Source: Methylophaga nitratireducenticrescens
Lineage (GTDB): Bacteria; Pseudomonadota; Gammaproteobacteria; Nitrosococcales; Methylophagaceae
Assembly (NCBI RefSeq): GCF_000260985.4
Contig: NC_017857.3
Span: forward strand, 1,798,001 to 1,862,000
Direction of reading: 5' to 3'
Length of the DNA: 64,000 nt
In this document: positions 2,398-57,744 of the stretch, piece after piece
How the letters are laid out: every line of letters starts with the position of its first letter
How positions within the stretch are numbered: the stretch's first letter is position 1
Notes under the pieces: generated by a model
The model's database searches: none
The model's input: only the letters and a program-made list of their open reading frames with translations
Told to the model about the DNA's origin: nothing
Program-made: the position numbers and the translations under genes

Positions 2398-2886
2398 CCC
2401 ATGCGTTTGCGTGGGAATGCAAACCTAATCAATAAACTCGTACTTCCAGCGAATCTCATCCGGCTTCATCATCTGCCTGACACTAAAACGGATCATGTTG
2501 GTTGGATCTGAAGCTTTGCCCAAGACAACATAACGACTGCCATCACGATCAAATCCCACGCCAGTTTTATCGTTGAATTCCGATATGGCGCCACTGTTTT
2601 GCAGGATAAAAGGCATTAAATCATCTGCTGCACCGGGTGGCGCAAACGGTGGAACAGTTTCAGGTCGATTGCACAAACCAACAAAGATTTCTTCATCGGT
2701 TGGCAGGATCAGAATATTCCAGTTGAACAGGGTATAGACCGATTTAGCTGTATTATTCATTAGATGGACAGCTCAGTTAAGTGTTTTCCACAGAAAGTCG
2801 GGGAATCAGATTCAAACAGGCTCCCACGCAGAGCGTGGGAGCCTGCTTTGTCATTGAAACTCGTTCCCATGCTTCTGCGTGGGAAC
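2398..2886. repeat. Three REP-like palindromes flanking a small gene
   Basis: Related hairpins occur at 2398-2415 (CCCATGC/GCGTGGG), 2817-2845 (a perfect 13-bp stem CAGGCTCCCACGC with a 3-base loop) and 2863-2886 (GTTCCCATGC/GCGTGGGAAC). They lie on both sides of the minus-strand gene at 2425-2760 and share the CCCAYGC...GCGTGGG core seen in dispersed intergenic palindromes of many gammaproteobacteria. They could serve as transcript 3' ends for the converging genes. Confidence 0.65.
2425..2760 (-). CDS. Hypothetical protein, 111 aa
   Basis: Not recognised. A soluble-looking 111-aa protein without signal peptide or membrane segment. Visible features are a Pro-rich stretch (RPETVPPFAPPGAADDL) and a basic/aromatic C-terminus (RQMMKPDEIRWKYEFID). 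It is isolated between REP-like palindromes and transcribed like the downstream hydrolase on the same strand, but 130 bases separate them. Start ATG at 2760 is the first in frame; no strong ribosome site was seen. Confidence 0.5.
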   Translation of the reverse strand: MNNTAKSVYTLFNWNILILPTDEEIFVGLCNRPETVPPFAPPGAADDLMPFILQNSGAISEFNDKTGVGFDRDGSRYVVLGKASDPTNMIRFSVRQMMKPDEIRWKYEFID

Positions 2887-16092: not shown

Positions 16093-17041
16093 AAATCTCT
16101 CCCATGCCTCTGGCTGTTGGGGCCAGTGTTCGTTTCGTCTCTAAATTTACAGAGAAGTTCAACACCTTCTCTAAGCTCACATCAAAAGCATCAGTCAGCC
16201 CATCTTGGCTATCAATTTGTTTAATTGTGGCACTATGAAGATGCTCAGCAGTTATCGTCTCACTTCCTGACTTAAGCGCATTATTGATCGCCGTTGTGAG
16301 AATGAGAACCAAAGGGCGCATCGCACCTGATGTGGCCGCATAACATCTGTCTTCAAAATCAGGACATTCAACTTGGATCCCATGTTGGCCTATTGTTTGG
16401 ACATATTTGAGGGTAACTGCTCGCCATGACGATCTGTCCTTCGGATAGAGAAAATGACTAAGATAATAGTGAGTTTGGAATCGGCTTCGAATTTGTTCAT
16501 CGGCATTCCACAAAACCATCACCGAACTCATTCCAGACAAAACAAATGAAACGCCCGTCTCGTCCAGTATTTTAAAGGCATTCAGAATGTTATCGATGAC
16601 TTTTTGGGAGGGGTTACCACCAGGGATTAAATGTTGAATTTCATCAATGATTATCAAACGACACTTTCTCTCTGAAATTGTCGCAATTAACCTTCGTTCT
16701 AAATCTTTTGTTGTAGAACGCCTCGCAAGTGGGTCTCCAAACCCTACCAGTAATTCAGAAAACATGCCTTTCACAGTAGAACCAGAGGTTAACTGGGTTC
16801 TTATCACAGCGTCCTCGCCATAAAGTTTTGTGCCATGCTTCAATAAAGCTTTGGTTAAAGTTGTTTTACCCACACCGCTGTTACCATGAACAATCATGCC
16901 ACTTCCAGGCATCCCTTCATCTTTCAGTGTCATCAAGCTCATGCCGCGATCAAAAGCTTTCTGAAAATTACCATGCGGGATACATCTTGAGAGGATCGCT
17001 TCATTTAACGTTTTGATTTTTTCATTATTGTTTACAGTCAT
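16082..17041 (-). CDS. tnsC: TnsC/TniB family AAA+ transposition ATPase
   Basis: AAA+ ATPase that links the target-bound TniQ protein to the transposase. Walker A is GNSGVGKT (53-60), Walker B LIIIDEIQH (about 129-137), followed by a sensor region VLSGMSS. Length 319 aa is that of the shorter TniB-like class rather than Tn7 TnsC (over 500 aa). Third gene of the operon, 9 bases after tnsB and overlapping tniQ. Confidence 0.9.
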   Translation of the reverse strand: MTVNNNEKIKTLNEAILSRCIPHGNFQKAFDRGMSLMTLKDEGMPGSGMIVHGNSGVGKTTLTKALLKHGTKLYGEDAVIRTQLTSGSTVKGMFSELLVGFGDPLARRSTTKDLERRLIATISERKCRLIIIDEIQHLIPGGNPSQKVIDNILNAFKILDETGVSFVLSGMSSVMVLWNADEQIRSRFQTHYYLSHFLYPKDRSSWRAVTLKYVQTIGQHGIQVECPDFEDRCYAATSGAMRPLVLILTTAINNALKSGSETITAEHLHSATIKQIDSQDGLTDAFDVSLEKVLNFSVNLETKRTLAPTARGMGEIFGK

Positions 17042-17050
17042 AATTTTTCC

Positions 17051-19075
17051 TTAAAATTCAATTTCATCAGGGATATTTTCAATTTCATCTGTTAATTCGT
17101 CTTTCATTGTCCGAAACTCATCTGCACCTTCTTCCGAATGAGATTGGTTAGAGAGCGTTCTGGGAAGTTCAGGTTGACTTGGTTTGTTTATTTTTCGTTT
17201 AGATTTATTTGGTCCTCCTTTGATATATCTGGCAGCTTTTGCCGGTAGTTTCTTTGTTCCTTTAGCTTGGGTGAATTCATCAATTTTGTTTTCAAGTGCC
17301 AATACCGCATCATGGTATTCATGGCGAGATAGGTTGGCTTTCTTGCGGTTATTCTTTTCTCTTAGCACAACTTTGTGATTGAAAAAGCTTCGGCCATGGG
17401 CGATCTTTTCTTTAGATTTAACCTCAAAAAATGTGTGATTGAGCTCATCAAAAACCCAAATCACGCCCACATCAGATTCAGACCACTTGAATTCGACGGT
17501 AGGGTTTTTACCATCATAATGAGACACGATTTGGTTTCTGTATCGAGACAGCCACTCATTGTTGAATGTGAGAGAGTTGAAGTGGACCCCGTCCGGTTGA
17601 ATACTAAAACGCTTTCTGCTGGACTTTGATAAACATAGTTTTACGTAGTCCTCTTCAAGTCCAGAACCTGCAAAACCATTCTTTTGTATTGAATTAGCCC
17701 ATAATTGATTAGGGGTATAACCATCCTTGTTAGGCGTTATATGCCGTAGAGTTACAATCCACTGTAAAAAAAGTTCTTTAAATTCATCAAACGATAAGTG
17801 AGGATAATCTAAGCCGTGTTTCTCTGGTTCGTATTTGTATACCTGACCGTTGTACTTGGAAAATAAACGTTTGTTTGTTTTACCAAACTCTCGCTCAACT
17901 TCAGCTTTATAAAAGGCCTGTCGGGGAGGCGAATAGCTAAGAGTAATACCTAATTCGATAGCAGCTTGTTCAAGATCTCGACCAAGAAAGTCCTTACCAT
18001 TGTCTAGGATTAATTCATCAGGGATCCCAAACATAGGCCACTGCCAAGTTGTATTGCCGCCCATTTCACTCATGATCTTTGGACTAATAGCCATCTTCAA
18101 CGCATTCATGACCGTGTCAGCATTTGGTGCGTATGGAGAAATCCAAAACCCCAGAATCGCCTCACTGTAACGATCAACTAACAGTGTTACCCATGGTCTT
18201 ACCAGCACACCTAAACCGAGATCGACATAAACATCTGCTTGTGTGTGATCTGCCTGGACAAGTTCAAGGTGTTTACTGACGATCGGTGACATTCTCTGGT
18301 GACGAGTCATTTTGTAGGCGTATTCATGGCTGAAACGCGAAGTTAAAACTTCGTATTTATCAAGTTTTTGAATGTGGCGACATAGCGTGTTATAACTCGG
18401 TGTGTCGATTAACTTCTGCCCGTTGGCACTACGCTGCCTATTTTCTAAATCAATTTTCGCAGCCATGAGCTCATGAACATTTCTGGCCGAACGGCGATGT
18501 TTATTCAAATAAACTGACTTAATAATTTCTTCAAGAAGCTCTAATTGCTCTGGACTCAATTTGGAATGAGTGTTGCCTGATGGCGATCTAATAAGGCTCA
18601 GGACATTCCCACCAGACTTTTGCCAATAGCGATACCAGCGTCTCACTGTAGCTTCGCTGGGGCTGTTTTTGATAGCTGTTCTATCAAGCTCGTGGCAGTT
18701 TTTTAGATATTTTTTGTGAGTTTGAATTACAAAATTAGTTACAGGTTTTTCAGAGAGTTTGCCTCCATTTCGCCGATAGGCATCCATTTCTGTCATATAA
18801 AAATGACGCATCAATACTTCATCAAGTTGATTTTCTGGAATAGTAGAGAGATTCACCTGAAAATTTGGCATTTCCCGGTAATAATCTGAGGTTTCATGCA
18901 GTTCAATTTTGTTTCGAAGAGATAAGTCATACAACTCATCTGCTGATAGATATTTGTCTACTCGACCTTTATGCGGAATCAACTTATATCTGCCGCCGGG
19001 ACCTTTCCCAGCACATGAATAAGTTTTGCCGTTTATTGAGAGACTTTCACCTTTTGAAAGACTTAAGCCAGCCAT
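17051..19075 (-). CDS. tnsB: TnsB/TniA family DDE transposase
   Basis: RNase H-fold transposase that binds the element ends and does strand transfer. The catalytic triad is readable: Asp276 (VQADHTQAD), Asp358 (LILDNGKDF) and Glu394 (KAEVEREFGKTN). N-terminal helix-turn-helix segments (about 80-260) and a C-terminal Mu-type beta domain (from about 500) surround the core; the acidic tail after 640 probably contacts TnsC. 674 aa is normal. It overlaps tnsA by 13 bases. Confidence 0.93.
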   Translation of the reverse strand: MAGLSLSKGESLSINGKTYSCAGKGPGGRYKLIPHKGRVDKYLSADELYDLSLRNKIELHETSDYYREMPNFQVNLSTIPENQLDEVLMRHFYMTEMDAYRRNGGKLSEKPVTNFVIQTHKKYLKNCHELDRTAIKNSPSEATVRRWYRYWQKSGGNVLSLIRSPSGNTHSKLSPEQLELLEEIIKSVYLNKHRRSARNVHELMAAKIDLENRQRSANGQKLIDTPSYNTLCRHIQKLDKYEVLTSRFSHEYAYKMTRHQRMSPIVSKHLELVQADHTQADVYVDLGLGVLVRPWVTLLVDRYSEAILGFWISPYAPNADTVMNALKMAISPKIMSEMGGNTTWQWPMFGIPDELILDNGKDFLGRDLEQAAIELGITLSYSPPRQAFYKAEVEREFGKTNKRLFSKYNGQVYKYEPEKHGLDYPHLSFDEFKELFLQWIVTLRHITPNKDGYTPNQLWANSIQKNGFAGSGLEEDYVKLCLSKSSRKRFSIQPDGVHFNSLTFNNEWLSRYRNQIVSHYDGKNPTVEFKWSESDVGVIWVFDELNHTFFEVKSKEKIAHGRSFFNHKVVLREKNNRKKANLSRHEYHDAVLALENKIDEFTQAKGTKKLPAKAARYIKGGPNKSKRKINKPSQPELPRTLSNQSHSEEGADEFRTMKDELTDEIENIPDEIEF

Positions 19076-19830
19076 GAGTCATTTCCGAAATGGACGGATT
19101 GGCTTTGAATTGGCAGATCCCAATCAATCAATAAGGCGCCATCTAAAATCATGCCCGCCAGCACTGCTCGCACTGAAGGGTAGGCTGAGGTTAATCTCAC
19201 TAGTTCATTGAAATCCATCGGCAATGAGCTGTTTAACCAAGTCTTTACATCATCAATCAGTCTTGTATGGGGAGAACCCTTACAAAAGCTGAGTAACAGT
19301 TTTGAATTATCAGTTCTGGTCGTGATGAGCTCCTGCTCTGTCAAAAGTGTATAGCTATATCCACGCTGCGCTGCGTATTGCTTCAATGCCGCGCAACGTG
19401 CCTTAAATTTTGGAGATTTAGTGTTATCGATATAGCGAATATCGATCAGTGCGTGCCCACTTTTTAAAGTCAACTCAAAATCCGGATAAACAGTTCTGAA
19501 CTTATCAAAAAAATACACGTTCACAGGATAAGGCTGAGTCTTATAGGAAAGAATTTCAGAGTAAGACTCAAAATATCTGCAGGCGTGTTTTTCAAGTGCA
19601 CTTTCAAAAGTCACCAACGCTTGATTAACTCTACTTGCGAAATAGCCAATAAAATGTGTTCTGAAACCCGAACGAAATACTTCCCTTGATACAGCCTGCT
19701 TGGTTAGCTTAGTTGGAATAAGGAGCTCACACGACGGATCATCCACAAATAGCGCATCAAACGCTTCGAGACGTGGCACATCTGGGGGGATTTCTGAATA
19801 ACCTAAGATTTTCTTTTTCGTTTCATTCAT
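19063..19830 (-). CDS. tnsA: TnsA-like endonuclease subunit with altered active site
   Basis: Partner of TnsB that cuts the 5' strands so the element moves by cut-and-paste. The PD-(D/E)xK core is visible: the Glu region YFESYSEILSYKTQPYPV, then YPDFELTL with the conserved Asp, then HALIDIRY where the usual (E/Q)-V-K should be. Thus the motif Lys is Arg and the preceding acid is Asp. No long TnsC-binding C-terminal domain is evident beyond about residue 170, but the length, 255 aa, is near Tn7 TnsA. The ATG at 19830 follows AAGG 12 bases upstream. Confidence 0.8.
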   Translation of the reverse strand: MNETKKKILGYSEIPPDVPRLEAFDALFVDDPSCELLIPTKLTKQAVSREVFRSGFRTHFIGYFASRVNQALVTFESALEKHACRYFESYSEILSYKTQPYPVNVYFFDKFRTVYPDFELTLKSGHALIDIRYIDNTKSPKFKARCAALKQYAAQRGYSYTLLTEQELITTRTDNSKLLLSFCKGSPHTRLIDDVKTWLNSSLPMDFNELVRLTSAYPSVRAVLAGMILDGALLIDWDLPIQSQSVHFGNDSWLA

Positions 19831-19882: not shown

Positions 19883-20890
19883 TTATTTCCTCAAAGCCAA
19901 TTTCAATAGTTCTTTCATAAAAGGTTCCGCTCCTGGTGAGTGATTAATTGCTGATGCGCTACGATGAATATAAAGCTCACCTGCTCTAACACCTATAATA
20001 CCGAACTTGGGATCAACTAATAATTCTGAAGATACAGCGTCTTTTTCTTGAAGTATAATCCAGCAATAGTCCACGTATGCTTCAGGTAAACTAGTTTCAA
20101 TGTTAGTTGCAGCATCAAATTCGTAATGTATTTCAAAAGTATGTATCTGGACTGGTGAGTCCAGCTTCAATTGAACTAGTGCTATTGCGTCATAAGTTAG
20201 ATTTTTTTGTTTATCATAAATTTTAGGATAGACATAACAACGAGCAGGGCTATTGACCTTAGTCCAAGAATGATTTTGCGATAGCACGAGAATGCTTTCA
20301 GCCTCAAAGCGATCAGCTTCATTTAAGCTAGCTACGAGTAGATCATCACCTCGTCCCCGGTTAGTTGCTCCTTGAAGGGCCGGACGATAAGCTTCCCAAG
20401 TTTGCTTGACTGAACGTATGGATGCTTTACCTGTAAGAATTTGTTCCGATAATTTAGTTGTAATGTCAGTAGGAGCCACACGTTCCAAACGTTCAAGAAT
20501 CTCTAATGCCTCAGCTGAGATAAAATCCGGAAGTTCTTCTAATTCACATAAAGTTTGATTATGTGATCTGAGTTTATTGTAATAGCTTCCAGCTTTTTTG
20601 TAACGCCAACATCTTGCTCTAGAGATATTGTAAGTGGTTGATATAAAGGACATCCATTCAGAAAAATTTGCAAATCCATAACGCCAGAGTTGATCGCGTT
20701 GAACTTTATCAATTACAGCAGCAAATGGCCCCCACAGTCTATCATCTAACTGGCTAACGGCTTTAGCAGTTATTTGAGGTAGGGTTTTCTCATTAATATC
20801 CATTTGTGTATCATATATCATGTTTGTCCATTCGTCAAGACTAAGATGAAAATTACGATTGGCTGTTAATACTGGACCATGTAGAGACAA
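19883..20890 (-). CDS. Unknown protein heading the Tn7-like operon
   Basis: Not recognised. 335 aa if the TTG at 20890 is used, which has TAGGAC seven bases upstream; an ATG at 20824 gives 313 aa. The N-terminal half is helical and rich in Trp/Tyr (DQLWRYGFANFSEWMSF, YNISRARCWRYKKAG), resembling a DNA-binding or partition-type helix bundle; the C-terminal half is beta-rich. It has no Walker or nuclease motif. Its position upstream of tnsA on the same strand suggests a transposition accessory or regulator, but it could equally be a neighbour outside the right end. Confidence 0.65.
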   Translation of the reverse strand: MSLHGPVLTANRNFHLSLDEWTNMIYDTQMDINEKTLPQITAKAVSQLDDRLWGPFAAVIDKVQRDQLWRYGFANFSEWMSFISTTYNISRARCWRYKKAGSYYNKLRSHNQTLCELEELPDFISAEALEILERLERVAPTDITTKLSEQILTGKASIRSVKQTWEAYRPALQGATNRGRGDDLLVASLNEADRFEAESILVLSQNHSWTKVNSPARCYVYPKIYDKQKNLTYDAIALVQLKLDSPVQIHTFEIHYEFDAATNIETSLPEAYVDYCWIILQEKDAVSSELLVDPKFGIIGVRAGELYIHRSASAINHSPGAEPFMKELLKLALRK

Positions 20891-48304: not shown

Positions 48305-48407
48305 CTTATGAAACTGAAAGACTATTATGGAGTACATATGGATACTGTGAATTGTCTAAATGCAGGTTCCAACCAAAGCGAACTTAAAATTACCAAAGGA
48401 GATTATT

Positions 48408-48542
48408 ATGAACATACATCTAGGCGATACCGCCCTAGACTTCGAAGCGAATACCACTGAAGGGATTATCAATTTCCATGATTGGCTTGGTGACGGATGG
48501 GGCATACTTTTCTCCCATCCGACCGATTTTACTCCCTTGTAA
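48408..48542 (+). pseudogene. Peroxiredoxin gene truncated before the catalytic Cys
   Basis: AAAGGAG at 48395-48401 leads to ATG 48408 and a 44-aa frame MNIHLGDTALDFEANTTEG ... GILFSHPTDFTPL that matches the start of 1-Cys peroxiredoxins (Prx6/AhpC type). The family continues PTDFTPVCTTELG; here a TAA follows Leu at the point where Val-Cys should be, so the catalytic Cys is lost. Non-homologous sequence follows at once, as from a recombination or insertion joint. Confidence 0.85.
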
Positions 48543-48569: not shown

Positions 48570-49245
48570 CAAACATTTTAATTTCTGATAATACCAATCC
48601 TACATTTTTTGTTCTTCTCAGATAAAACGATGTCGTTATATGAAATTACGCATTTTTGTCCACCGGCTTCGCTGCGACTAAATGTCTTGTAGCAAGCGGT
48701 TTCCAGTACTTGAAATCATCCTTGGACTCATGTTTTTAAGCCTATCAACCACCGTATCAGATAACTGTCGAACAAAAGCTTTGACCCAACTCTTTCTGAT
48801 AAGTATCTCATTATCGACATTGCGTACAATTAACTCGTTTTCTTTTGGTGTCGGCTCAACTTACCTGCCTCCAACTTTGGCTGTGCACGGCAAAAAGACT
48901 TCGAGGGACACAGTCACTGGTATGACCTGCAGAAAGGACAATACATTCAAGGCTTGGTAGCGTAGGAGGGCAACGAGCGTTGTGTATATGTGGTGACGCT
49001 GGAGCCGGAACCCGAAGATGCCCAGATCCATAGTCGCTGGCCAAGAGTGGTTCAATTAGGGGAAAGAAGTATCAAAATCTCTTAAAAACGTAACGGTTAC
49101 TAACTACACAAACTACGCATAAAATATAATGTAACATATTACTATTGCGAAATAAGTGTATGATATATATAATAAAATAACTTGACATCCCGATTCATCC
49201 TTCATTATTCTCTGCTTCAAAGTTGGAGTGGTTTAGGAGAATGAA
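48570..49245. other. Joint region with decayed coding traces
   Basis: About 680 bases with no supported gene. A plus-strand stretch near 48897-49057 reads as protein-like sequence (FEGHSHWYDLQKGQYIQGL, then after a stop NERCVYVVTLEPEPEDAQI), perhaps a gene remnant of unknown origin. AT-rich sequence at 49100-49180 and TTGACA at 49183-49188 may hold the promoter for the next operon. Confidence 0.3.
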
Positions 49246-50190
49246 GTGGAAGAAGAAGAGACGGTAGGGAAGCTTATAAAATTTGAAGATTGGGCTTTTG
49301 TCAGGTTCAGTTCGGAGTTATCAGTTGCTGGCTTTGATGTAGAGAAAGAACAAGCGAGGGTGAGTACTCCTGTGGTTGCAATAGATATTGAATCGCATAT
49401 AGCAACAACCCAATCTGGCTCTCGATATAAACTTGGAAAAACGTCCAGTGGTTTACATCGTCTGGCCAAAATTATTTTAGCCACCAGATTTTCAAATCGA
49501 CGCTTCACCATCATGTCACCTGGAGAGGAGGGGGATAATAAGTCAAGAGGCTCTGTTCTTCATCAAGCTAGAAGCCTTATCAATGCTTTCCAACAAAATC
49601 CCTATCCGCCTTATCAGAGTAAAGCCAGCAAATTGTTAAGAAAAGAATTTACGAGCACTTCTGATTGTTTTCATGTTCTTTCTTTTTGTCGTCATAATTT
49701 TCTATTCATTGGCAAATCCCACGATGAATTTACGCTTTGGAATGAATTTGCTTTGAGTCATCCTTGCAGTCAAGAAGTTGAAGAGATTTTCACTCAACAA
49801 AACTATCAGCGCTTCTTAGCCACCGAGAAAGCGAGTCAGCATTTAGAACGAGATGAGCTTTCTAAAGTCGTCATCGATTCTGATTTCCCCATCATTTTTT
49901 CAAGATCACTTTGGGATGAAATGTGTCGTCTATCGACGGTAATGATGAACAAACTCGTTGATTTAACCAATCAGAAAAACGCATCCCCATTAGCATTATC
50001 CCCGCCGACCAAGGAGGCAAGGATAAGTTGGGCACTAGATAACCGGACATCTTTCCACTCCAGAAAAAGTGCTAAAGATGATCTAATCGAGACTTTCAAT
50101 AGCAATTATTACCTTCTAAGCATATTGGATAGACATTATCGGGCTGTTCAGGCTATTTATGACTTAAAAGGAGAGCAGGAAAATGACTAA
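49246..50190 (+). CDS. Unknown protein, 314 aa, first gene of a five-gene cluster
   Basis: Not recognised. GTG start at 49246 with AGGAG (49235-49239) at good spacing; an ATG at 49241 is in another frame. Soluble. The N-terminal 75 residues hold a beta-rich element with STPVVAIDIESHIATTQSGSRYKLG; a similar TTTGSRYxL core reappears in the 97-aa gene two genes on, hinting at a shared small domain. The rest is helical with no visible catalytic motif. Overlaps the AAA+ gene by 8 bases, so the two are probably coupled partners. Confidence 0.7.
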   Translation: MEEEETVGKLIKFEDWAFVRFSSELSVAGFDVEKEQARVSTPVVAIDIESHIATTQSGSRYKLGKTSSGLHRLAKIILATRFSNRRFTIMSPGEEGDNKSRGSVLHQARSLINAFQQNPYPPYQSKASKLLRKEFTSTSDCFHVLSFCRHNFLFIGKSHDEFTLWNEFALSHPCSQEVEEIFTQQNYQRFLATEKASQHLERDELSKVVIDSDFPIIFSRSLWDEMCRLSTVMMNKLVDLTNQKNASPLALSPPTKEARISWALDNRTSFHSRKSAKDDLIETFNSNYYLLSILDRHYRAVQAIYDLKGEQEND

Positions 50191-51166
50191 GAAAACGCCA
50201 TTTATCCGTTTATACGATAAACAAGCCTTATTAAAGCGACGCGAAACTCTCTCCAAGGATGTTGTCCAGCAGACCAAAATGATGTTTGAGCGATTACCTG
50301 AGGTCCGAATTCGGTCGCAGCTCAGTATCGAACAAATAAAAGAAATTGTGTCTCAATTACGGCGTGAATTCCCCAACTTTTCTGAAGCAACAGACTACAT
50401 TAATCAACAACTCATACTCTCTGCTGCGAGCACTTCAAAGGGCAGCTATTTCTCGCCTTTGTTATTGCTGGGTCCACCAGGGATAGGAAAAACGCATTAT
50501 GCAAGAGAACTGGCCAACCTATTAGGGGTGGGATTTGAAAAAATAGATCTGTCGACAACCACCGCTGTAATGGTGTTGTCTGGTTCATCTTCGCAATGGG
50601 GTAATTCCAAGCCCGGTATCGTTGCATCGCATCTTTTGCAAAATCACAGGGCTAATCCTGTGTTGGTTTTAGATGAGATTGATAAAGCAGGTCAGAAAAC
50701 GGGTGATGCTACTAATGCCTTGTTGACGCTACTTGAGCCTGAAGCGGCAAGAGAGTTTCAGGATGAGTTTGTGCAAGTGCCAATGGATGCCTCACATATT
50801 TGCGTTATCGCCACCGCCAATAACGTCGATCCTATTGAAGAGCCGATTTTAAGTCGATTTAAGAAGATCACCGTTTCTGAACCAACACCAGATCAATTGA
50901 GACAAATTGCCCCTTATGCACTTGATAGTTTGATCAAGCAGTCTGAAATTGAACCTATTATGACTGCGACTCTAGGTACGGATGCACTCAATGCCTTACA
51001 GCTACAACAAATAAACGTTCGTCAGTTGAATGAGATATTGCGATTAGCTATGTTTTATGGCGTGCAAGATAAGTCTCGTCAGTTAACTGAATTTCACATC
51101 ACCAAAGCCGTTAAACATATACAGGGTGATAGTGCAAAGCCCAAACCGAAAAAAAACCTTCATTAA
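50183..51166 (+). CDS. Lon-type AAA+ ATPase without protease domain
   Basis: 327-aa AAA+ ATPase with Walker A GPPGIGKTH (about 98-106), Walker B PVLVLDEIDKA (about 152-162), sensor 1 IATAN and Arg finger ILSRF. The sequence around these, including LLTLLEPEAAREFQDEFV, is that of the Lon ATPase module, but the Ser-Lys protease domain and the N-terminal LON domain are missing. It therefore acts as a remodelling motor for its partner. ATGA-like overlap with the upstream gene. Confidence 0.85.
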   Translation: MTKKTPFIRLYDKQALLKRRETLSKDVVQQTKMMFERLPEVRIRSQLSIEQIKEIVSQLRREFPNFSEATDYINQQLILSAASTSKGSYFSPLLLLGPPGIGKTHYARELANLLGVGFEKIDLSTTTAVMVLSGSSSQWGNSKPGIVASHLLQNHRANPVLVLDEIDKAGQKTGDATNALLTLLEPEAAREFQDEFVQVPMDASHICVIATANNVDPIEEPILSRFKKITVSEPTPDQLRQIAPYALDSLIKQSEIEPIMTATLGTDALNALQLQQINVRQLNEILRLAMFYGVQDKSRQLTEFHITKAVKHIQGDSAKPKPKKNLH

Positions 51167-51194
51167 TCGGTCACATTTTAGCAGAGGCAATCAT

Positions 51195-51488
51195 ATGATT
51201 AACGTCCCCCCAGGAAGTATTGTAATGACAGACTGGAACATTCTGATCATTGAGTATGAGAGCGACGTTATCGAGAAATTTTTGGGTTACGACATAAATA
51301 CAGGAGAGTTTCGTTTTAGCTCTGCCATAAAAGAGTATGACCCCCATACCAATAGAGGAACCACGACGACGGGTTCTCGATATTGTTTTCTGACGCCGCC
51401 CGGAAGGCTTCACCCGAAGGCTCAGAAGGCCTATGACGATTTCTGCAAAGTGAAAGAAGTGAACATCAAATTAAAATACGAGTTTTAG
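51195..51488 (+). CDS. Small hypothetical protein, 97 aa
   Basis: Not recognised. ATG at 51195 chosen over earlier in-frame codons because GAGG (51184-51187) precedes it and the 23 extra residues upstream look like read-through. Beta-rich, containing TTTTGSRYCFLTPPGRLHP, similar to TTQSGSRYKLG in the 314-aa gene; the rest is acidic and helical. 2 bases before the next gene, so in the same operon. Confidence 0.6.
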   Translation: MINVPPGSIVMTDWNILIIEYESDVIEKFLGYDINTGEFRFSSAIKEYDPHTNRGTTTTGSRYCFLTPPGRLHPKAQKAYDDFCKVKEVNIKLKYEF

Positions 51489-51490
51489 CC

Positions 51491-51904
51491 ATGCATAAGA
51501 CGTTAACGGATGCACTCTATTCAAATTGTCCTATCATTTACCGAAATCGAGATGCAGCAGACACGGAAAATCGAACGTTGATGGTTTGGGGCTTTCTCTG
51601 CGGCTCAGGCTGGTTCGATTTACTCTTAAACCTCTCAGATTCACTAGAAAAAAACGCTCGTAGGCAACAACAGATGGGCATTCCAGAAAGTAAACTGCCA
51701 ATGATCAGTCAGGTGAAAGAAAAATTTGGCGGGCTGAGGGTCTATATGAAAAATGGCAGCCCAGAGTTATATGCATTGATTGAAAAAGCTCAACATGCTT
51801 CTACATCAATCTGTGAGTGTTGTGGCGATGATGGAAAGATGGTGGTTGTAGACGGTTGTGTGATGACACGCTGTAACAATCACATCGGTCACGTCGCTAA
51901 TTAA
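51491..51904 (+). CDS. Zinc-ribbon-like hypothetical protein, 137 aa
   Basis: Family seen in phages and mobile DNA, function unknown. The central pattern SQVKEKFGGLRVYMKNG and a C-terminal four-ligand cluster (CECCG ... CVMTRCNNHIGH) suggest zinc binding. The N-terminal part is helical (GWFDLLLNLSDSLEKNARR). Between the 97-aa gene and the phosphoesterase; likely same operon. Confidence 0.65.
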   Translation: MHKTLTDALYSNCPIIYRNRDAADTENRTLMVWGFLCGSGWFDLLLNLSDSLEKNARRQQQMGIPESKLPMISQVKEKFGGLRVYMKNGSPELYALIEKAQHASTSICECCGDDGKMVVVDGCVMTRCNNHIGHVAN

Positions 51905-51925
51905 TCGTAACACTTCAAGGTTTTT

Positions 51926-52693
51926 ATGAAATTTCAACTTTTTTCTGACTTACATCTTGAGATGGGGGACAGCTTCATCCCACCGGACTCCGATGCCGAC
52001 GTCATCATTTTGGCAGGCGATATTAATACTGGATTAAAAGGGCTTGAATATGCTGTCGAGCTTATTAAGCACTTGGGTAAAGATGTTATTTATGTGCCTG
52101 GCAATCATGAATTTTACCGTTATGACATCGGGTTACTGCGTGAAGAGATGGCGTTATTAGCCAAAGCGCATTCTAAGCTTCACTTGCTTGATAACGATAT
52201 AGTCAAAATACATGGTGTACGTTTTATAGGGTCCACCTTATGGACAGACTATGCACTTGATGGAAGTCTCGATAAACAGAAAACAATGGACTTTATCGGC
52301 TTTTACTTAAACGATCACCGGTTGATAAAAACTGGCGATAAACGTTTTAAACCACAAGATGCACTTGTACTTCATCAAGAATCAAAGTTATTTCTGCAGC
52401 AGAAGCTTAGTGAGCTATTTGATGGTAAAACCGTGGTGGTGACACACCATGCACCGAGCTTACTTTGTCATCATCCTGATTTTGAGATGGATGACATGGC
52501 TGCCGCCTTTATTTCGGATTGTGATGATTTACTTAACCATTCTGATGTCTGGTGTTTTGGCCATACGCATGCAAACATTGATATGGATATTAATGGGTGT
52601 AGAGTGCTGAGCAATCAAAAGGGGTATTTTCGTGAGAGGATGCCACATCCTTTCAGGCCAAATTTAATAATTCAAGTAGATGATTTAGATTAA
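51926..52693 (+). CDS. Calcineurin-like metallophosphoesterase
   Basis: 255-aa two-metal phosphoesterase. The metal-binding motifs are all visible: FSDLHLE, LAGDINTG, VPGNHEFY, VVVTHHAPS and CFGHTHANID. Soluble. Substrates in the family include phosphodiesters, nucleotides and cyclic nucleotides; being beside a CBASS operon raises the possibility of cutting a cyclic oligonucleotide, but it is on the other strand and in its own operon, so this is conjecture. Confidence 0.85.
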   Translation: MKFQLFSDLHLEMGDSFIPPDSDADVIILAGDINTGLKGLEYAVELIKHLGKDVIYVPGNHEFYRYDIGLLREEMALLAKAHSKLHLLDNDIVKIHGVRFIGSTLWTDYALDGSLDKQKTMDFIGFYLNDHRLIKTGDKRFKPQDALVLHQESKLFLQQKLSELFDGKTVVVTHHAPSLLCHHPDFEMDDMAAAFISDCDDLLNHSDVWCFGHTHANIDMDINGCRVLSNQKGYFRERMPHPFRPNLIIQVDDLD

Positions 52694-52730: not shown

Positions 52731-53258
52731 CTAACTTTCTTCTTTAAGTTGGATCCACTGGTCAGAAACATAGTTACTAGCTAACCACACAGTTATATTA
52801 GATGATGACATTGTATTGCCAATAATTATTTGAAGAAACCCATTCATTTCTCCTTTTGATGCACTTAGATACTTCTGTGTAGTAATTTTGTCTTCATGCG
52901 ATGGCTTTGGATGGAGTTGTGGATGGGTGTGCCAGAGACCTACGGCGTAAAGCCCTTTATTGAAAAAGTATTCTCTATCTTTATTAATATTATTTAAACA
53001 TGGGTTAAAACTGTTTCTAGATCGAAAATCTTCTTTGTAGGGGCCGGTAGCGACTGAAACTGAAACTACGGAACTATCAGGGTTTTCACTAAAAATTTGG
53101 CCTCCCGCTTCTTTGTCTGACTTTCTGACTTGTGCATACTTGAATATATGTTCAAGTACTTTTCCTGTCAGATGAATCAGTCCTGCTTGATTAGGCAAAA
53201 TAAAATACCGATCATTCAAAATCAAATTCCGTAATGATGCCATCATAGTCGCGAGCAA
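52731..53258 (-). CDS. cap3: Cap3, JAMM/JAB isopeptidase of CBASS
   Basis: 175-aa Zn-isopeptidase that removes Cap2-conjugated CD-NTase from its targets. JAMM motif complete: Glu50 (EAGGQIF), His110 and His112 with Ser120 and Asp123 (WHTHPQLHPKPSHED). The frame opens inside cap2 (overlap up to 47 bases); starts at 53246, 53243 or a downstream TTG are also possible, so the first 10-15 residues are uncertain. Last gene of the CBASS operon. Confidence 0.88.
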   Translation of the reverse strand: MLATMMASLRNLILNDRYFILPNQAGLIHLTGKVLEHIFKYAQVRKSDKEAGGQIFSENPDSSVVSVSVATGPYKEDFRSRNSFNPCLNNINKDREYFFNKGLYAVGLWHTHPQLHPKPSHEDKITTQKYLSASKGEMNGFLQIIIGNTMSSSNITVWLASNYVSDQWIQLKEES

Positions 53259-54873
53259 AAGACGCCCATTGTTTGAGTTTTAGACCGGGATAACATTTAT
53301 CAAGGTAGTTTTGGCCCCTAATCCAATGCCTAACGATGGGGTGTACTACTTTTAGGTCTATAACATCCAATGCTGCCTCCGTTATTAATGCTACTGCATG
53401 TGAAGCTGATGCAGATGTATAACATTGAAAGCTGCTGCTACAGGCTGGTTCATTGACTATAACTTCGTTGGGCCAATCAACTACGTTCAAACTATTTAGT
53501 CTGTCTATATTGTCTGTTATCCAAAAATTATCAGTTGGCAAAATACATGCGTGAGCAGAAGCAGCATATGGTTCCATCCACCCAATTAAAAGGTTTACCT
53601 TATACTTTTTCCGCTCTTGATTGACTATAAGTCGAACACTTGGCTCCCCGGTGAGATCTAGGATAATATCAATATTTCTCAACGTGTGATTTTTAAGCCA
53701 TTGTTGAATAGACATAGAAAACCCATGTGCATCACAGCTAACCCATCTCACAGCTATACTTTCTGCCAATCGCTCTACTTTATAAAAACCGATTGAGTCT
53801 GCTCCTAATGTGTGACGACCAATATTGGCAGAATTTAAAGTGTCACCATCAACTAATGTCAGCTTGCCAATTCCAGATTTTGCAAGCTGTTCTGCTACAG
53901 GACTACCCAAAGCACCTGCGCCAATGATTAATGCGTGTTTTTGCTGTCTATCGAGATATTCTGGATGTTGATCCCTTCCAGTAGTCCAGCTTACATCCAA
54001 TCGCTCGACCTTAAGAGGAATTAGTCTTTTGCTAGGAAATGATTTGTTGGAGTAGCCTTTCTTAATCTTTAAAGCTGGACCATCGGGTAAAAGATACCCA
54101 AAGGAACAGTCAGCTGCTCTAAAAACGACAATTTTATGAATACTCCTTTTTTTTCTCCCTACAGATTCTAAATACTTATCTGCATCAATAGATCCTAGTT
54201 TAGCTTTGATTAGTCTTTGTATATCTTTTAAGTTTTTGGGCCAAGTTTCTGGAGTGAAAGGGAATGAAATAGGTATTTCACATACCATCACACTTGATAT
54301 GTTACTTCCGCAACTAATTGCATTAACGTAGCGATTTCGTATTGATGAGTCATTACCGGCGATGACAATGCGTATACTTTCTATGTAAGGCGATTTATAC
54401 ACTCTCGGTAAATCAACTTTATGATCTGTTGTATAAATTTTCACTACGGGTTGAGTTGATGTTAAATATCTTGAGTAATGTATTGCCCAATAATTCATTG
54501 CCTCTTTGGCAAAGTGGTCGTCCAAATCCCCTCTTGACCATGGCTCTATAAACGAGGAATAAAATAGATCAATGATTTGCTCAATTCGCTCTTCTGGTGA
54601 ACATCCGCTTAATGGGCCAGGGTCACCATCAATACAAAGGTTCCCATGGTTTTCTATATGAGGAATTTTCAGAATATATTTTTCTGGAAGCGAAATTTTT
54701 GCTAATCCCTTGTCAGCAAAGTCACTAGGAATCTCGATCCAAGCTGTATCAATAGCTCTTTCATTAGATAAATCTGGAATCCAAAGTGGAAATCGTCGAG
54801 AGGAATTGGATGTTTCTATTTCATCCAATAGATACTTATGCTCACGAAGAAATTGATCAAACCCTTTCTGCAA
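53212..54873 (-). CDS. cap2: Cap2, E1/E2-type ubiquitin-like conjugation enzyme of CBASS
   Basis: 553-aa fusion. N-terminal E2-like domain with candidate Cys80 (HGNLCIDGDPGP). Then a linker and a C-terminal ThiF/E1 adenylation domain from about 310: nucleotide loop IIGAGALGSPVAEQL, LVDGDTLNSANIGRHTLG, and an active-site Cys region NEPACSSSFQCYTSAS (Cys478 or Cys484). In CBASS it attaches the CD-NTase C-terminus to target proteins, priming cyclase activity. The start lies 2 bases after the CD-NTase gene. Confidence 0.92.
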   Translation of the reverse strand: MQKGFDQFLREHKYLLDEIETSNSSRRFPLWIPDLSNERAIDTAWIEIPSDFADKGLAKISLPEKYILKIPHIENHGNLCIDGDPGPLSGCSPEERIEQIIDLFYSSFIEPWSRGDLDDHFAKEAMNYWAIHYSRYLTSTQPVVKIYTTDHKVDLPRVYKSPYIESIRIVIAGNDSSIRNRYVNAISCGSNISSVMVCEIPISFPFTPETWPKNLKDIQRLIKAKLGSIDADKYLESVGRKKRSIHKIVVFRAADCSFGYLLPDGPALKIKKGYSNKSFPSKRLIPLKVERLDVSWTTGRDQHPEYLDRQQKHALIIGAGALGSPVAEQLAKSGIGKLTLVDGDTLNSANIGRHTLGADSIGFYKVERLAESIAVRWVSCDAHGFSMSIQQWLKNHTLRNIDIILDLTGEPSVRLIVNQERKKYKVNLLIGWMEPYAASAHACILPTDNFWITDNIDRLNSLNVVDWPNEVIVNEPACSSSFQCYTSASASHAVALITEAALDVIDLKVVHPIVRHWIRGQNYLDKCYPGLKLKQWASFARDYDGIITEFDFE

Positions 54874-54874
54874 T

Positions 54875-56158
54875 TTAAGCTAAGCCTTTGGTTGGTGGCG
54901 CTTTGTGAGCTTGAGTTGGTCTGTTTTGAGCCAAACCACTTATAATTGGGGATGGTGGGCTCTGAGTAGCTGTGCAGCCGAAGACCTCCTTAATTATTTG
55001 TCTTCTGGAATCTAGATTATCGGCGGCAAGAATTTCATTCAAATTTTCTTTTAATAGATTTGTCCATATATCAAAAGAATTCTTCAATTGTGGATTTTCA
55101 TTCCACTTTTCAGCAAAATTTTCACCTTCAACTGTTGGATTAGAAATCCAATAATCATTAGCTCGATGTTCGATCATATATGGCATCAACTCCACCAGGT
55201 CGAGGAGGAGCTCAATCGGATGTGTGTAAACTGCTCCTTTATCAGCCAAGCCTTCGTAGCACTGTGTTAACAGAGTCACGATAATTATCGAGATAGGTTT
55301 TAAATTAGGTTCAATATAGTTACGTTTAACGGACATATCCCTATGCCTTTTTAAGAGTCGAATTGCTACGCGTAAGGTGTCCGAAATTTCAACTTCTTGT
55401 GCAGGAACAGGAATAACACTATCTAAGCTATAGCTTTCTTGCATCGAATTTTCTATAAGCCATCGCAGTAAAGGTCTGGAAGACTGATCATTTACCCAGC
55501 TTGAGAATCCTTCAGGGTTTGAGGTCTTCCACTGTCTAGAAGGAGTATTGACAACAGCTAAAGCTTTGTCTCTGTAACGATTACTTGGAGAAAGAGCGAT
55601 TTGATTGGTAGCTGTCTGGGGCACCTTATTTAGCGGCGTCGAAGGTGTAAACTCGATATAGTATCTGCGTCCTTTAAAATCTACTTTCCAGCATCTCCTT
55701 TTAGCTTCAGGCTCCCACTCTTCAATAGCAAGACCAACTTTATCGAAAAAATCCATTGGATCATTAACTTCAATCATGGATAAATCGACAGAACAAACCG
55801 CATCAATGTCAAATTTTGAATTGTCTGGTGATCTAATTAAAGTTTTAGTGCTCACTGAACCCTGAGGGATAATACGTATGGACTCATTCGGCCAATGTAA
55901 TTTTTCAACTAATTTATTAGCGATTTTGTCATAATCGACTGATGCTTCACCGAAAATACTTTCATCAACCTTTATGTGGTCATTAACCATCTTTATGTCT
56001 AGAGCTAACGCTTCAAGATGACGTCTCGAGTCTTGAATGCTATCCATGACAAGAGATTCTCGCAAAGTTTTAGTTATTTGCGTGTTGTTTTTACGTCTAG
56101 CCATAGCCTCATTTACGAGGTATGAATAATGTGTATCTGCCATTTTAATATCCTTCAT
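54875..56158 (-). CDS. cdn: CD-NTase (CBASS cyclic oligonucleotide synthase)
   Basis: 427-aa nucleotidyltransferase that makes the alarm molecule on infection. Active site: GS at 100-101 (IIPQGSVSTKT), then Asp117-x-Asp119 (KFDIDAVCSVD); a third acid may be Glu169 (YYIEFTPS) rather than the usual Asp. The C-terminus is a flexible Pro-rich tail ending TKGLA, the form Cap2 needs as donor. The ATG overlaps the effector's stop (ATGA). Clade D/G-like by its partner; not determined here. Confidence 0.92.
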   Translation of the reverse strand: MKDIKMADTHYSYLVNEAMARRKNNTQITKTLRESLVMDSIQDSRRHLEALALDIKMVNDHIKVDESIFGEASVDYDKIANKLVEKLHWPNESIRIIPQGSVSTKTLIRSPDNSKFDIDAVCSVDLSMIEVNDPMDFFDKVGLAIEEWEPEAKRRCWKVDFKGRRYYIEFTPSTPLNKVPQTATNQIALSPSNRYRDKALAVVNTPSRQWKTSNPEGFSSWVNDQSSRPLLRWLIENSMQESYSLDSVIPVPAQEVEISDTLRVAIRLLKRHRDMSVKRNYIEPNLKPISIIIVTLLTQCYEGLADKGAVYTHPIELLLDLVELMPYMIEHRANDYWISNPTVEGENFAEKWNENPQLKNSFDIWTNLLKENLNEILAADNLDSRRQIIKEVFGCTATQSPPSPIISGLAQNRPTQAHKAPPTKGLA

Positions 56159-57744
56159 CTGAGACTAATGCTATGTTGCAGTTCGCTTTCAAAATCAACT
56201 GACAAAACTTCGTTTCCAGTTATATCGAGAGCTGGTACGAATGGCTTTGAACCATCAGGTCTATCATAGACTCTGTATGTTGAATGGTTACCGGCTTGTA
56301 ACATCTGACCAAATTTAAAAAGTGAACTGGCAGGAGATACCCCAAACACATGTATCATCTTTGAACGCCAGGAATCTTGAATCGTGTTTATGGCTTGCCG
56401 TGCTAAGCTTGAAAAAGACTCTAGTCGCTCTTGAGAATGGATGCAGTTTGGATTTGGATTGCTGTTGGTAATTCTGACCCACCCAATTTTCTTTTCTTGA
56501 ATTGCCTTTACAAGCTCCTCAGGCAGTGACCTCATGTCGAGAGTAGCTGTGAGCTCTAATGATAGGATCGTCTCTGTAGAATTAATGGGATTAGCTACTT
56601 CATATGAAATATCGAATGTAGAAGTTATGTTCAAATCTTGGTTTTGCCACTGCCATGATGACCTTTCACGGTCATACTGAAAAAGTTGTATATTTCTAGC
56701 TTCACCGATAACCCTACCGGAAAGAACCAGCACAGGAACTAAATGGAGTGGAAAGATGGCTAAATAATCAGGTGAAATAACTGATGACTGAGAAGGCTTA
56801 TTGCTTGTGAAGGCAATCAATTCTCGAATGTCTGACTCATGCTCATGTAAAAAGTGTCCCCAAAAACCAGGGCGACCTCGATCATCCCTCTGTGTTCTTC
56901 GAATCATATGTCTGATTTCGGGTAAAGGACTGAGCTCTCGTCTCAGAACTGATTCACGTAGTTCAGCCAAAGATACATTTGTGGGAATTTGTGCTAAGTC
57001 TGCAAGCAGCGTTATTATCTGTGCAGTTGGATAGCGCAAACTATCCAGGAGCTTAGCAACACGAACTGTATGGTCTTCCCTCATTTGCTTTAAATATGAG
57101 ACAGAATGTTTATTAACATCGATTCTATCTACAAGCCTATGATGTGCATCGCACATTAACATGATGTTTTCAGGGTCGTCTGATGAGTTATGGGAATGTT
57201 CATTCCCTCTTGGACCATCAGGGTCAGAAGCTACTATATGTGCTAAATATGCAACTCTTGCAATTTTTGTCGTTAGTGGGGTAGACCCAAGATCTTGTCC
57301 ACACCCGCGATACATACATCTTCCTGCAGCATCATGCCAAACCATAGCAGCCGTATGGTTTGATATGGCTTTCCCACGACCTTTAAGAAATAATTTATCT
57401 CTTGAAGCCTTTAGATCAGTAATATCCCTGACCTGAGCTTCAAGCAATACCCAATCAGGTTTTGAAGTATAAATGTTATCCAATTCTTTAAATGGAAGCT
57501 CTATACGTTGCAGAAGTTTCGATTTTGATAACAATTTTAGGGTTTTTACGGTCTCAGCGCCTAAGTCACCAATAAACAATGGTGTAGGCTTTGAGCATAC
57601 CTCAAATACCTTGAATAAATAGTTCGCATGAGCATAAGCTACGCGTGACTCATTAGAGTGGTGTAAACAAAGCCATGCTGCCAGTTCAAGGTCAGAAAAA
57701 CCTTCCGGCAGCTTTTCCTCAGGCTTCAACGTATTTCCTTGCAT
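56155..57744 (-). CDS. cap5: Cap5-like HNH-SAVED nuclease effector with N-terminal extension
   Basis: 529-aa CBASS effector that cuts DNA when its SAVED domain binds the cyclic oligonucleotide. HNH nuclease at about 135-205: CMYRGCG, AHIVASDPDGPRG with His169, then PENIMLMCDAHHRLVD (Asn193, His201/202). SAVED domain in the C-terminal part (about 300-525; IHVFGVSPASSLFKFGQML). Known Cap5 proteins are about 380-400 aa with HNH near the start; here about 130 residues of unknown helical sequence precede it. Operon head after the 82-aa gene. Confidence 0.9.
   Translation of the reverse strand: MQGNTLKPEEKLPEGFSDLELAAWLCLHHSNESRVAYAHANYLFKVFEVCSKPTPLFIGDLGAETVKTLKLLSKSKLLQRIELPFKELDNIYTSKPDWVLLEAQVRDITDLKASRDKLFLKGRGKAISNHTAAMVWHDAAGRCMYRGCGQDLGSTPLTTKIARVAYLAHIVASDPDGPRGNEHSHNSSDDPENIMLMCDAHHRLVDRIDVNKHSVSYLKQMREDHTVRVAKLLDSLRYPTAQIITLLADLAQIPTNVSLAELRESVLRRELSPLPEIRHMIRRTQRDDRGRPGFWGHFLHEHESDIRELIAFTSNKPSQSSVISPDYLAIFPLHLVPVLVLSGRVIGEARNIQLFQYDRERSSWQWQNQDLNITSTFDISYEVANPINSTETILSLELTATLDMRSLPEELVKAIQEKKIGWVRITNSNPNPNCIHSQERLESFSSLARQAINTIQDSWRSKMIHVFGVSPASSLFKFGQMLQAGNHSTYRVYDRPDGSKPFVPALDITGNEVLSVDFESELQHSISLR

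What the first reader, a model, noticed from the sequence alone, without database searches (positions are those of the whole stretch)
49246..52693. Five-gene cluster with a Lon-type AAA+ motor beside CBASS: candidate undescribed system
The sequence shows five closely packed plus-strand genes: unknown 314-aa protein, protease-less Lon-type ATPase (8-base overlap), 97-aa protein, zinc-ribbon-like protein and a metallophosphoesterase. It abuts a complete CBASS operon and a recombination joint. A remodelling ATPase coupled to an unknown partner plus a phosphoesterase is a layout typical of defence or plasmid-maintenance modules. No family I know combines these. Function is inference.
Basis: partly seen in the sequence, partly recalled or inferred. 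Interest (0 to 1): 0.72.

Follow-up and report, generated by a model that had tools for sequence, protein, structure and literature searches.

The report
Mobile AAA motor–phosphoesterase gene cassette
A five-gene block in a methanol-using bacterium looks like two mobile gene sets joined together (an ATP-driven motor with a new small partner family, and a phosphate-cutting enzyme with two small partners) whose parts keep turning up side by side in other bacteria, which suggests an undescribed system used in conflicts between microbes and mobile DNA; its function is untested.

Summary
The five genes are real, intact, packed on one strand and, against one congener, under purifying selection. The whole set was found only in Methylophaga: the window and one congener (90% nucleotide identity, different site, no CBASS seen beside it), plus a contig-end copy of the first gene in another. 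CBASS adjacency therefore looks incidental. The cluster is composite. (i) A 97-aa-type protein (P97), a Cys-rich 137-aa-type protein (P137) and a metallophosphoesterase (MPE) stand together without the other two genes in two congeners; tandem P97–P137 arrays occur in more. (ii) The Lon-type, protease-less ATPase has two more copies in this genome, each followed by a P97 gene. The 314-aa protein itself begins with a P97-type domain. In other Proteobacteria the ATPase subfamily often has P137 and/or a metallophosphoesterase close by on the same strand (23 of 56 loci; 0 of 27 in a mostly solitary group set apart afterwards). P137–MPE neighbours also occur in viral contigs. P97 and P137 matched no convincing family model where scanned. 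Best reading: a modular, mobile ATPase–adaptor–phosphohydrolase system for phage/mobile-element conflict. The association is well supported; the defence role is inference.

The parts
48360..48542 (+). Truncated peroxiredoxin fragment, left part of the recombination joint
   Evidence: AhpC-TSA 5.4e-4, below the Pfam cut-off, 60 aa only
48892..49085 (+). Remnant of a gene that is intact (145 aa) upstream of the 314-aa gene in congener G411, next to a umuC-like gene; SRAP-like by eye only
   Evidence: 89% nucleotide match of window 48892-50119 to L015; ORFs of L015; no Pfam match for the 145-aa protein; left end from the alignment, right end read by eye
49246..50190 (+). P314: residues about 3-94 are a P97-type domain; for the remaining ~220 aa no relative outside Methylophaga was found
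   Evidence: dN/dS 0.15
50183..51166 (+). Lon-type AAA+ ATPase without protease domain; a G...W motif between Walker A and B is shared with many relatives (54 of 83 loci by a crude pattern)
   Evidence: dN/dS 0.10
51195..51488 (+). P97: small protein, prototype of a family expanded in Methylophaga
   Evidence: no library match for it; none in Pfam for five relatives
51491..51904 (+). P137: Cys-rich small protein (CExCG...C), member of a family common in viral contigs
   Evidence: only weak, scattered matches among 37 members in PHROGs, Pfam and PADLOC, none for the window protein
51926..52693 (+). MPE: calcineurin-like metallophosphoesterase with the metal-binding motifs
   Evidence: PF00149 9.6e-12, phrog_1649 1.6e-46, PADLOC candidate PDC-S10 2.6e-10, motifs
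52731..57744 (-). Neighbouring CBASS operon (JAB, E1-E2, cyclase, SAVED-HNH); a neighbour, not part of the cassette
2425..2760 (-). P111: solitary paralogue of the P97 family elsewhere in the window
   Evidence: P97-P111 pairwise E 2e-5; profile match

Best explanation
A composite mobile cassette formed by joining two gene sets that also circulate apart: an AAA+ motor with a P97-domain partner, and P97 - P137 - metallophosphoesterase. Shown: the gene pairs recur side by side, nearly always on one strand, in many loci. Inferred: the Lon-type ATPase is an ATP-driven remodelling ring; the P97-domain proteins (P314 is an enlarged one) and the Cys-rich P137 are adaptor or recognition subunits; the exchangeable phosphoester hydrolase is the effector, acting on a nucleotide or on nucleic-acid ends. 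Also inferred: the system serves conflict between host, phage and other mobile elements (defence, or competition between elements), because its genes are mobile, form diversifying paralogue arrays, sit beside several kinds of restriction/CBASS genes in Methylophaga, and swap hydrolase types. Substrate and trigger are unknown.
For: (1) P314-ATPase 8-base overlap; P97-P137 gap 2 bases; P137-MPE gap 21 bases; all five genes intact and in order in G407. (2) This genome holds two more ATPase copies, each followed on the same strand by a P97 gene (57 bases away in L364, 4-base overlap in L365) and preceded by a similar 169-aa gene, LAGLIDADG-type by Pfam in L364; congener G407 has a second such set (L425). 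P97 also directly follows the ATPase in L056 and precedes it in L193 with one 77-aa ORF between. (3) In 83 ATPase loci (80 plus 3 of the 80 viral loci) P137 occurs within 4 kb in 14, MPE-type in 19, either in 23, both in 10; all are among the 56 loci outside L163-L189, where it is 0 of 27 (Fisher p 3.5e-5, descriptive: the group was set apart after the maps were seen, and kin are not corrected for). By distance, P137 lies within 1 kb in 12 of 83, always same strand, none between 1 and 8 kb; MPE 28 of 29 same strand. (4) Second sample: of 31 ATPase places hand-picked from the list, 9 have a same-strand MPE starting from 4 bases inside to 68 bases after the ATPase gene; a tenth (L393, 557 bases) is the same contig stretch as L204 of the first sample. 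(5) On a plasmid (L004) the ATPase is fused behind a segment resembling the Cys-rich end of P137 (34% over 41 aa, E 0.001); a second record (L005) carries nearly the same protein (498 of 525 positions, stop included). (6) Partner hydrolases differ: calcineurin-like (L200, L210), HD (L082; weak in L196), exonuclease (L202), GIY-YIG-like (L208), HAD (L209); a circularly permuted YpsA SLOG protein lies near the ATPase in L204 and L004; a NIF-type phosphatase lies by P97/P137 in L062. (7) Of nine hand-picked neighbours of P97/P137 loci, seven match PADLOC defence models (CBASS cyclase and phospholipase effector in L065; type I R-M in L068 and L064; methyltransferases in L070 and L081), one TniQ (L063), one nothing.
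Against: The full five-gene set is seen only in the window and G407, with a contig-end trace in G411. The nearest ATPase relatives by core identity (45-55%, L163-L189) have no P137 or MPE nearby. On the ATPase tree the window's protein and its G407 copy are an isolated long branch, and the 'linked' label needs 13 changes (7 forced by well-supported branches), so linkage arose or was lost many times; L163-L189 is not one clade there, as L188 falls beside a linked row. Shared hotspots rather than shared function could give both signals. 33 of the 56 other loci, which include Lon proteases and distant relatives, have neither P137 nor MPE within 4 kb; in the second sample 19 of 31 have none of P97, P137 or MPE. 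P137 in viral contigs lies among replication and nucleotide-metabolism genes, which points away from defence. Neighbours for searches were chosen by eye. No structure, complex or phage data.
Confidence: 0.45

Rival explanations
1. Counter-defence or nucleic-acid housekeeping of mobile elements: P137-MPE derives from phage genes that process nucleotides or nucleic-acid ends, is carried by elements for their own benefit, and the ATPase is an add-on chaperone.
For: In 79 viral P137 loci an MPE lies within 200 bases on the same strand in 6. Recurrent neighbours look like DNA ligase, DNA polymerase, exonuclease and deaminase by eye. Passages of PMC7824862 predict that some phage calcineurin-type phosphodiesterases act against nucleotide signals.
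Against: The ATPase is not near P137 in these viral loci (0 of 79 at E below 1e-5); in Methylophaga the genes form arrays, some beside defence genes.
Confidence: 0.25
2. Metalloenzyme activase: the ATPase, with P97/P314 as adaptor, remodels or loads the metallophosphoesterase, as MoxR-type AAA+ proteins with adaptor partners are thought to do for their target enzymes (recalled). The biological role is open.
For: An ATPase next to small partners and a dinuclear-metal type of enzyme, nearly always same strand.
Against: The ATPase is Lon-like; partners include other enzyme types; 27 ATPase loci have no such enzyme nearby.
Confidence: 0.12
3. Hitchhikers: the genes share mobile hotspots and are neighbours by chance of insertion, without acting together.
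For: Arrays vary in content; neighbours include integrase-like, relaxase and Tn7-like genes (mostly by eye); MPE has a different history from the other four genes between window and G407 (dS 1.4 against 0.12-0.23).
Against: Same-strand spacing of tens of bases or overlaps, repeated in distant bacteria; fusion on a plasmid; P97 domain on both sides of the ATPase in the window.
Confidence: 0.18

Closest known systems
Lon protease AAA+ module (TIGR00763; PDB 7krz and others)
   Same: AAA+ domain closest by sequence among solved structures
   Different: No protease domain and no Lon N-terminal domain in the Pfam scan; G...W motif between Walker A and B; cassette partners
DolB of Dodola (PADLOC PDLC03838)
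   Same: Best PADLOC match of the ATPase, 1.6e-9
   Different: Weak match; none of the other four proteins matches a Dodola model
PDC-S10, a PADLOC phage-defence candidate
   Same: MPE matches its N-terminal half, 2.6e-10; MPEs of L226 and L228 match too
   Different: Partial match; a single-gene candidate (recalled); no paper held names it
phrog_1649 phage metallophosphoesterases
   Same: MPE matches over residues 1-237 at 1.6e-46
   Different: Listed as 'other'; no function beyond metallo-phosphoesterase
ARG-centred conflict systems with interchangeable phosphatases (PMC9503650; section 3.8 read, passages)
   Same: Swappable calcineurin-like, HD and HAD phosphatases around a conserved core
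   Different: No ARG domain was identified here; the core here is a Lon-type ATPase with P97/P137
BREX (Lon-like BrxL with PglZ phosphatase; recalled)
   Same: Lon-type ATPase paired with a phosphatase-type enzyme
   Different: No PADLOC match to BREX proteins for the five genes

Membership tests
Lon protease | Lon-type AAA+ domain | tested here: met
   TIGR00763 4.5e-30 over the AAA part; Lon is the best PDB match
Lon protease | C-terminal Ser-Lys protease domain | tested here: not met
   No Lon protease model among Pfam matches up to E 1; the protein ends after the AAA domain
CBASS (cassette as ancillary genes) | Conserved linkage to the cyclase operon | tested here: not met
   No CBASS-like ORF beside the five-gene copy in G407 as read by eye; one P97/P137/MPE array, in L065, is near a CBASS cyclase
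Dodola | DolA plus DolB | tested here: not met
   Weak DolB match only; no DolA match among the five proteins
BREX | BREX core proteins | tested here: not met
   No BREX model for the five proteins
MoxR-VWA type activases | Adaptor with VWA domain | tested here: not met
   No VWA match in the five proteins
SbcCD/Mre11-Rad50 | ABC/SMC-type ATPase with the phosphoesterase | tested here: not met
   ATPase is AAA+
Toxin-antitoxin or plasmid maintenance | Known toxin or antitoxin family, or plasmid location | tested here: inconclusive
   No such family match; 314-aa protein in no record of the plasmid collection; ATPase relatives below 60% identity on 86 plasmid records; toxicity not testable
Calcineurin-like metallophosphoesterase | DxH / GD / GNH(E/D) / H / GHxH motifs | tested here: met
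Anti-phage defence system | Protection against phage | not testable with these tools
   Only neighbourhood evidence

The most novel reading that the evidence does not exclude
A previously undescribed class of mobile conflict system in which a protease-less Lon-type AAA+ ring is directed by a rapidly diversifying family of small P97-domain adaptors (with Cys-rich P137) to deploy interchangeable phosphoester hydrolases. P97/P137 arrays would be the specificity repertoire, and phages would carry the P137-hydrolase half for their own use.
Probability: 0.27. Interest if true: 0.82.

Novelty: new variant of a known kind. Interest (0 to 1): 0.56.

Why it matters
If right, it adds a motor-plus-hydrolase module found in many Proteobacteria, with two protein families not modelled in the libraries scanned (P97; P137, which is common in viral contigs), and gives cheap handles (adaptor arrays, swappable hydrolases) to test how AAA+ rings are coupled to effectors in phage-bacterium conflict. 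It also suggests that the neighbouring CBASS is not the key: the recurring partners are.

Tried and rejected
Rejected: the five genes as a CBASS accessory (no CBASS seen beside the G407 copy); a plasmid-borne maintenance locus (no record of the plasmid collection holds the 314-aa protein); the ATPase as a full Lon. The match of the 314-aa protein in G351 (E 3e-4, 68 aa, four stops in the frame) was set aside as chance. Led nowhere: scans of viral contigs with the 314-aa and 97-aa proteins (no relatives); literature searches for the combination, for PDC-S10, for cpYpsA/PF12694 and for the P137 motif (listings held no paper on this system; two returned none); GMT islands (listing only, not pursued); Methylophaga islands (listing, nothing on this locus); promoter and terminator scans (no more sites than in shuffles); P137 profile against the PDB (best E 0.0036 to Sgf11, not taken as homology). 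The G...W pattern missed members, so it was not used as a filter.

Selection and limits: one search used 3 of the 80 viral loci; the group L163-L189 was set apart after its maps were seen; L211/L212 look like copies and several loci are kin; the MPE label partly rests on a motif pattern; one search used 31 hand-picked places, one of them (L393) also in the first sample; proteins sent to searches were picked by hand; 'SRAP-like', 'umuC-like', most integrase names and the viral neighbour names are read by eye. In one search, P137 in L205 and L209 overlaps the ATPase frame too far to fall into a distance bin, hence 12 against 14; not every locus reaches 8 kb on both sides.
Full report
Setting. 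The window lies at C1:1798001-1862000 of a single-contig genome of 3.135 Mb.

Gene 2 is a Lon-type AAA+ ATPase without a protease domain. Gene 5 is a calcineurin-like metallophosphoesterase (MPE) with the metal-binding motifs. Genes 1, 3 and 4 match no convincing family in Pfam, NCBIfam, PADLOC or PHROGs (gene 4 has weak matches at E 0.04 and above). To the left is a joint of gene fragments; to the right, tail to tail, a CBASS operon.

Conservation. The full-length 314-aa gene occurs in 3 of 63 genomes of the order: own, G407 at 93% and G411 at 85% over 291 residues at a contig end; the two other matches cover only its N-terminal domain. In 369 genomes of the class only the own one has a true match, and there is none in plasmids, phages or viral contigs. 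In G407 all five genes are present in order, 89.8% identical over window 49023-52672, in another setting: polysaccharide-type genes on the left by eye, a LAGLIDADG-type gene on the right, no CBASS seen. Window against G407 gives dN/dS of 0.15, 0.10, 0.14, 0.29 and 0.09 in gene order. MPE has dS 1.4 against 0.12-0.23 for the others, so it was probably replaced by recombination; a second MPE 3' fragment lies downstream in G407.

Two gene sets. In G414 and G415 genes of the 97-aa type (P97), the 137-aa type (P137) and MPE stand together without genes 1 and 2. Tandem P97-P137 arrays, some with MPE, occur in further Methylophaga loci (L063, L065, L067, L068/L069). Conversely, this genome has two more copies of the ATPase (L364, L365). 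Each is followed on the same strand by P97 (57 bases away; 4-base overlap) and preceded by a similar 169-aa gene and a small HTH-like gene; the Pfam matches (LAGLIDADG_1; HTH, about at or below cut-off) were tested for L364 only. L365 lies next to a relaxase gene. G407 has a second copy of that arrangement (L425). The window's cluster thus looks like a joint of two circulating sets.

The P97 family. P314 residues 11-75 align with P97 (pairwise E 3e-5 for a one-sequence search without composition correction); P314 alone finds P97-type proteins of G414 and G415 at 3e-6 and 1e-5. An iterated profile finds 33 members in the loci held, the 314-aa proteins included (later rounds contain them, so those E-values are not independent). 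The family has 67 places in 25 of 63 order genomes, six of them in this genome.

The ATPase elsewhere. With three viral loci added, 83 were mapped. L163-L189, mainly Rhodocyclales-type betaproteobacteria, stood out as solitary once mapped: 0 of 27 have P137 or an MPE within 4 kb. Of the other 56, which include Lon proteases, 14 have P137, 19 an MPE, 23 either, 10 both. Fisher's p for 23/56 against 0/27 is 3.5e-5, but the split was made after seeing the maps, kin are not corrected for, and L163-L189 is not one clade on the tree (L188 falls elsewhere). Distance is the better control: P137 lies within 1 kb in 12 of 83, always same strand, and never between 1 and 8 kb; MPE counts fall from 9 (within 200 bases) to 0 (5-8 kb), 28 of 29 on the same strand (bins differ in width and some loci are short). 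In a second sample of 31 hand-picked places, 9 have an MPE on the same strand starting between 4 bases inside and 68 bases after the ATPase gene, one of them with P137 too; a tenth, L393, is the same as L204 of the first sample; the two own-genome loci have P97; 19 have none of these. On plasmid L004 the ATPase is the C-terminal part of a 524-aa protein whose N-terminal part resembles the Cys-rich end of P137 (E 0.001); L005 carries nearly the same protein. The tree of 67 ATPase domains shows that linkage is clustered but changed often (13 changes, shuffle mean 18.6, 0 of 500 as low; near-copies inflate such clustering).

Partners differ in family but share a theme. Next to or near the ATPase one finds calcineurin-like, HD, exonuclease, GIY-YIG-like or HAD proteins, and a cpYpsA SLOG protein in L204 and L004; next to P97/P137 there is a NIF-type phosphatase in L062 (ten proteins picked by hand). 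In L427 and L430 proteins resembling the SLOG and NIF-type ones by eye lie near P97-MPE-P97. Interchangeable phosphatases around a conserved core are named among the features of ADP-ribose-centred conflict systems in PMC9503650 (section 3.8 read). That section mentions no such ATPase; whether the systems are related was not tested.

Viral contigs. Of 79 loci with P137, 6 have MPE within 200 bases on the same strand. The usual neighbours look like replication and nucleotide-metabolism genes by eye. No ATPase of this subfamily lies near them (0 of 79 at E below 1e-5).

Defence context. Nine hand-picked neighbours of Methylophaga P97/P137 loci were scanned: seven match PADLOC defence models, one TniQ, one nothing. 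With the window's own CBASS this is suggestive only, since defence genes are common in mobile islands.

Reading. What is shown is recurrent same-strand linkage of ATPase, P97, P137 and phosphohydrolase in varying subsets, intact frames under purifying selection in Methylophaga, and changing locations. What is inferred is that they act together, with the ATPase as motor, P97/P137 as adaptors and the hydrolase as effector, and that the purpose is conflict with phages or other elements. The literature searches made listed no description of the system; PMC7824862 was seen in passages only.

Noticed in passing
window 14236-19830 (-): Four genes that read like Tn7-type tnsA, tnsB, tnsC and tniQ, with a 335-aa protein at 19883-20890 on the tnsA side; named by eye, not scanned.
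   Followed up: no
window 19883-20890 and L215:2123-3025: The 335-aa protein beside the Tn7-like genes resembles by eye a 301-aa protein upstream of the ATPase-P137 pair in a Methylomonas contig.
   Followed up: no
L427, L430, L063 and L015: A recurrent Methylophaga island combines umuC-like, SRAP-like, NIF-type phosphatase and P97/P137/MPE genes in varying subsets, some with a SLOG-like gene; one (L063) ends at TniQ/TnsC-like genes.
   Followed up: partly
L014:16285-16580: A second MPE 3' fragment downstream of the G407 cassette matches the window's MPE at about 81%, against 78% for the full MPE of that cassette; suggests recombination between MPE copies.
   Followed up: partly
L068 and L069 (G403): P97/P137 matches of the same sizes and E-values occur twice, near the two ends of one 3.1-Mb contig; the copy in L068 lies beside type I restriction genes.
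   Followed up: no
L163-L189: A protease-less Lon-type ATPase, often about 320-330 aa, is frequent on Rhodocyclales-type chromosomes without P137 or MPE nearby; it may be a separate, housekeeping-like group.
   Followed up: partly
window 24210-48304: Long stretch of metal-resistance-like genes (two-component system, copper oxidase, P-type ATPase, CusBA-like efflux), named by eye.
   Followed up: no
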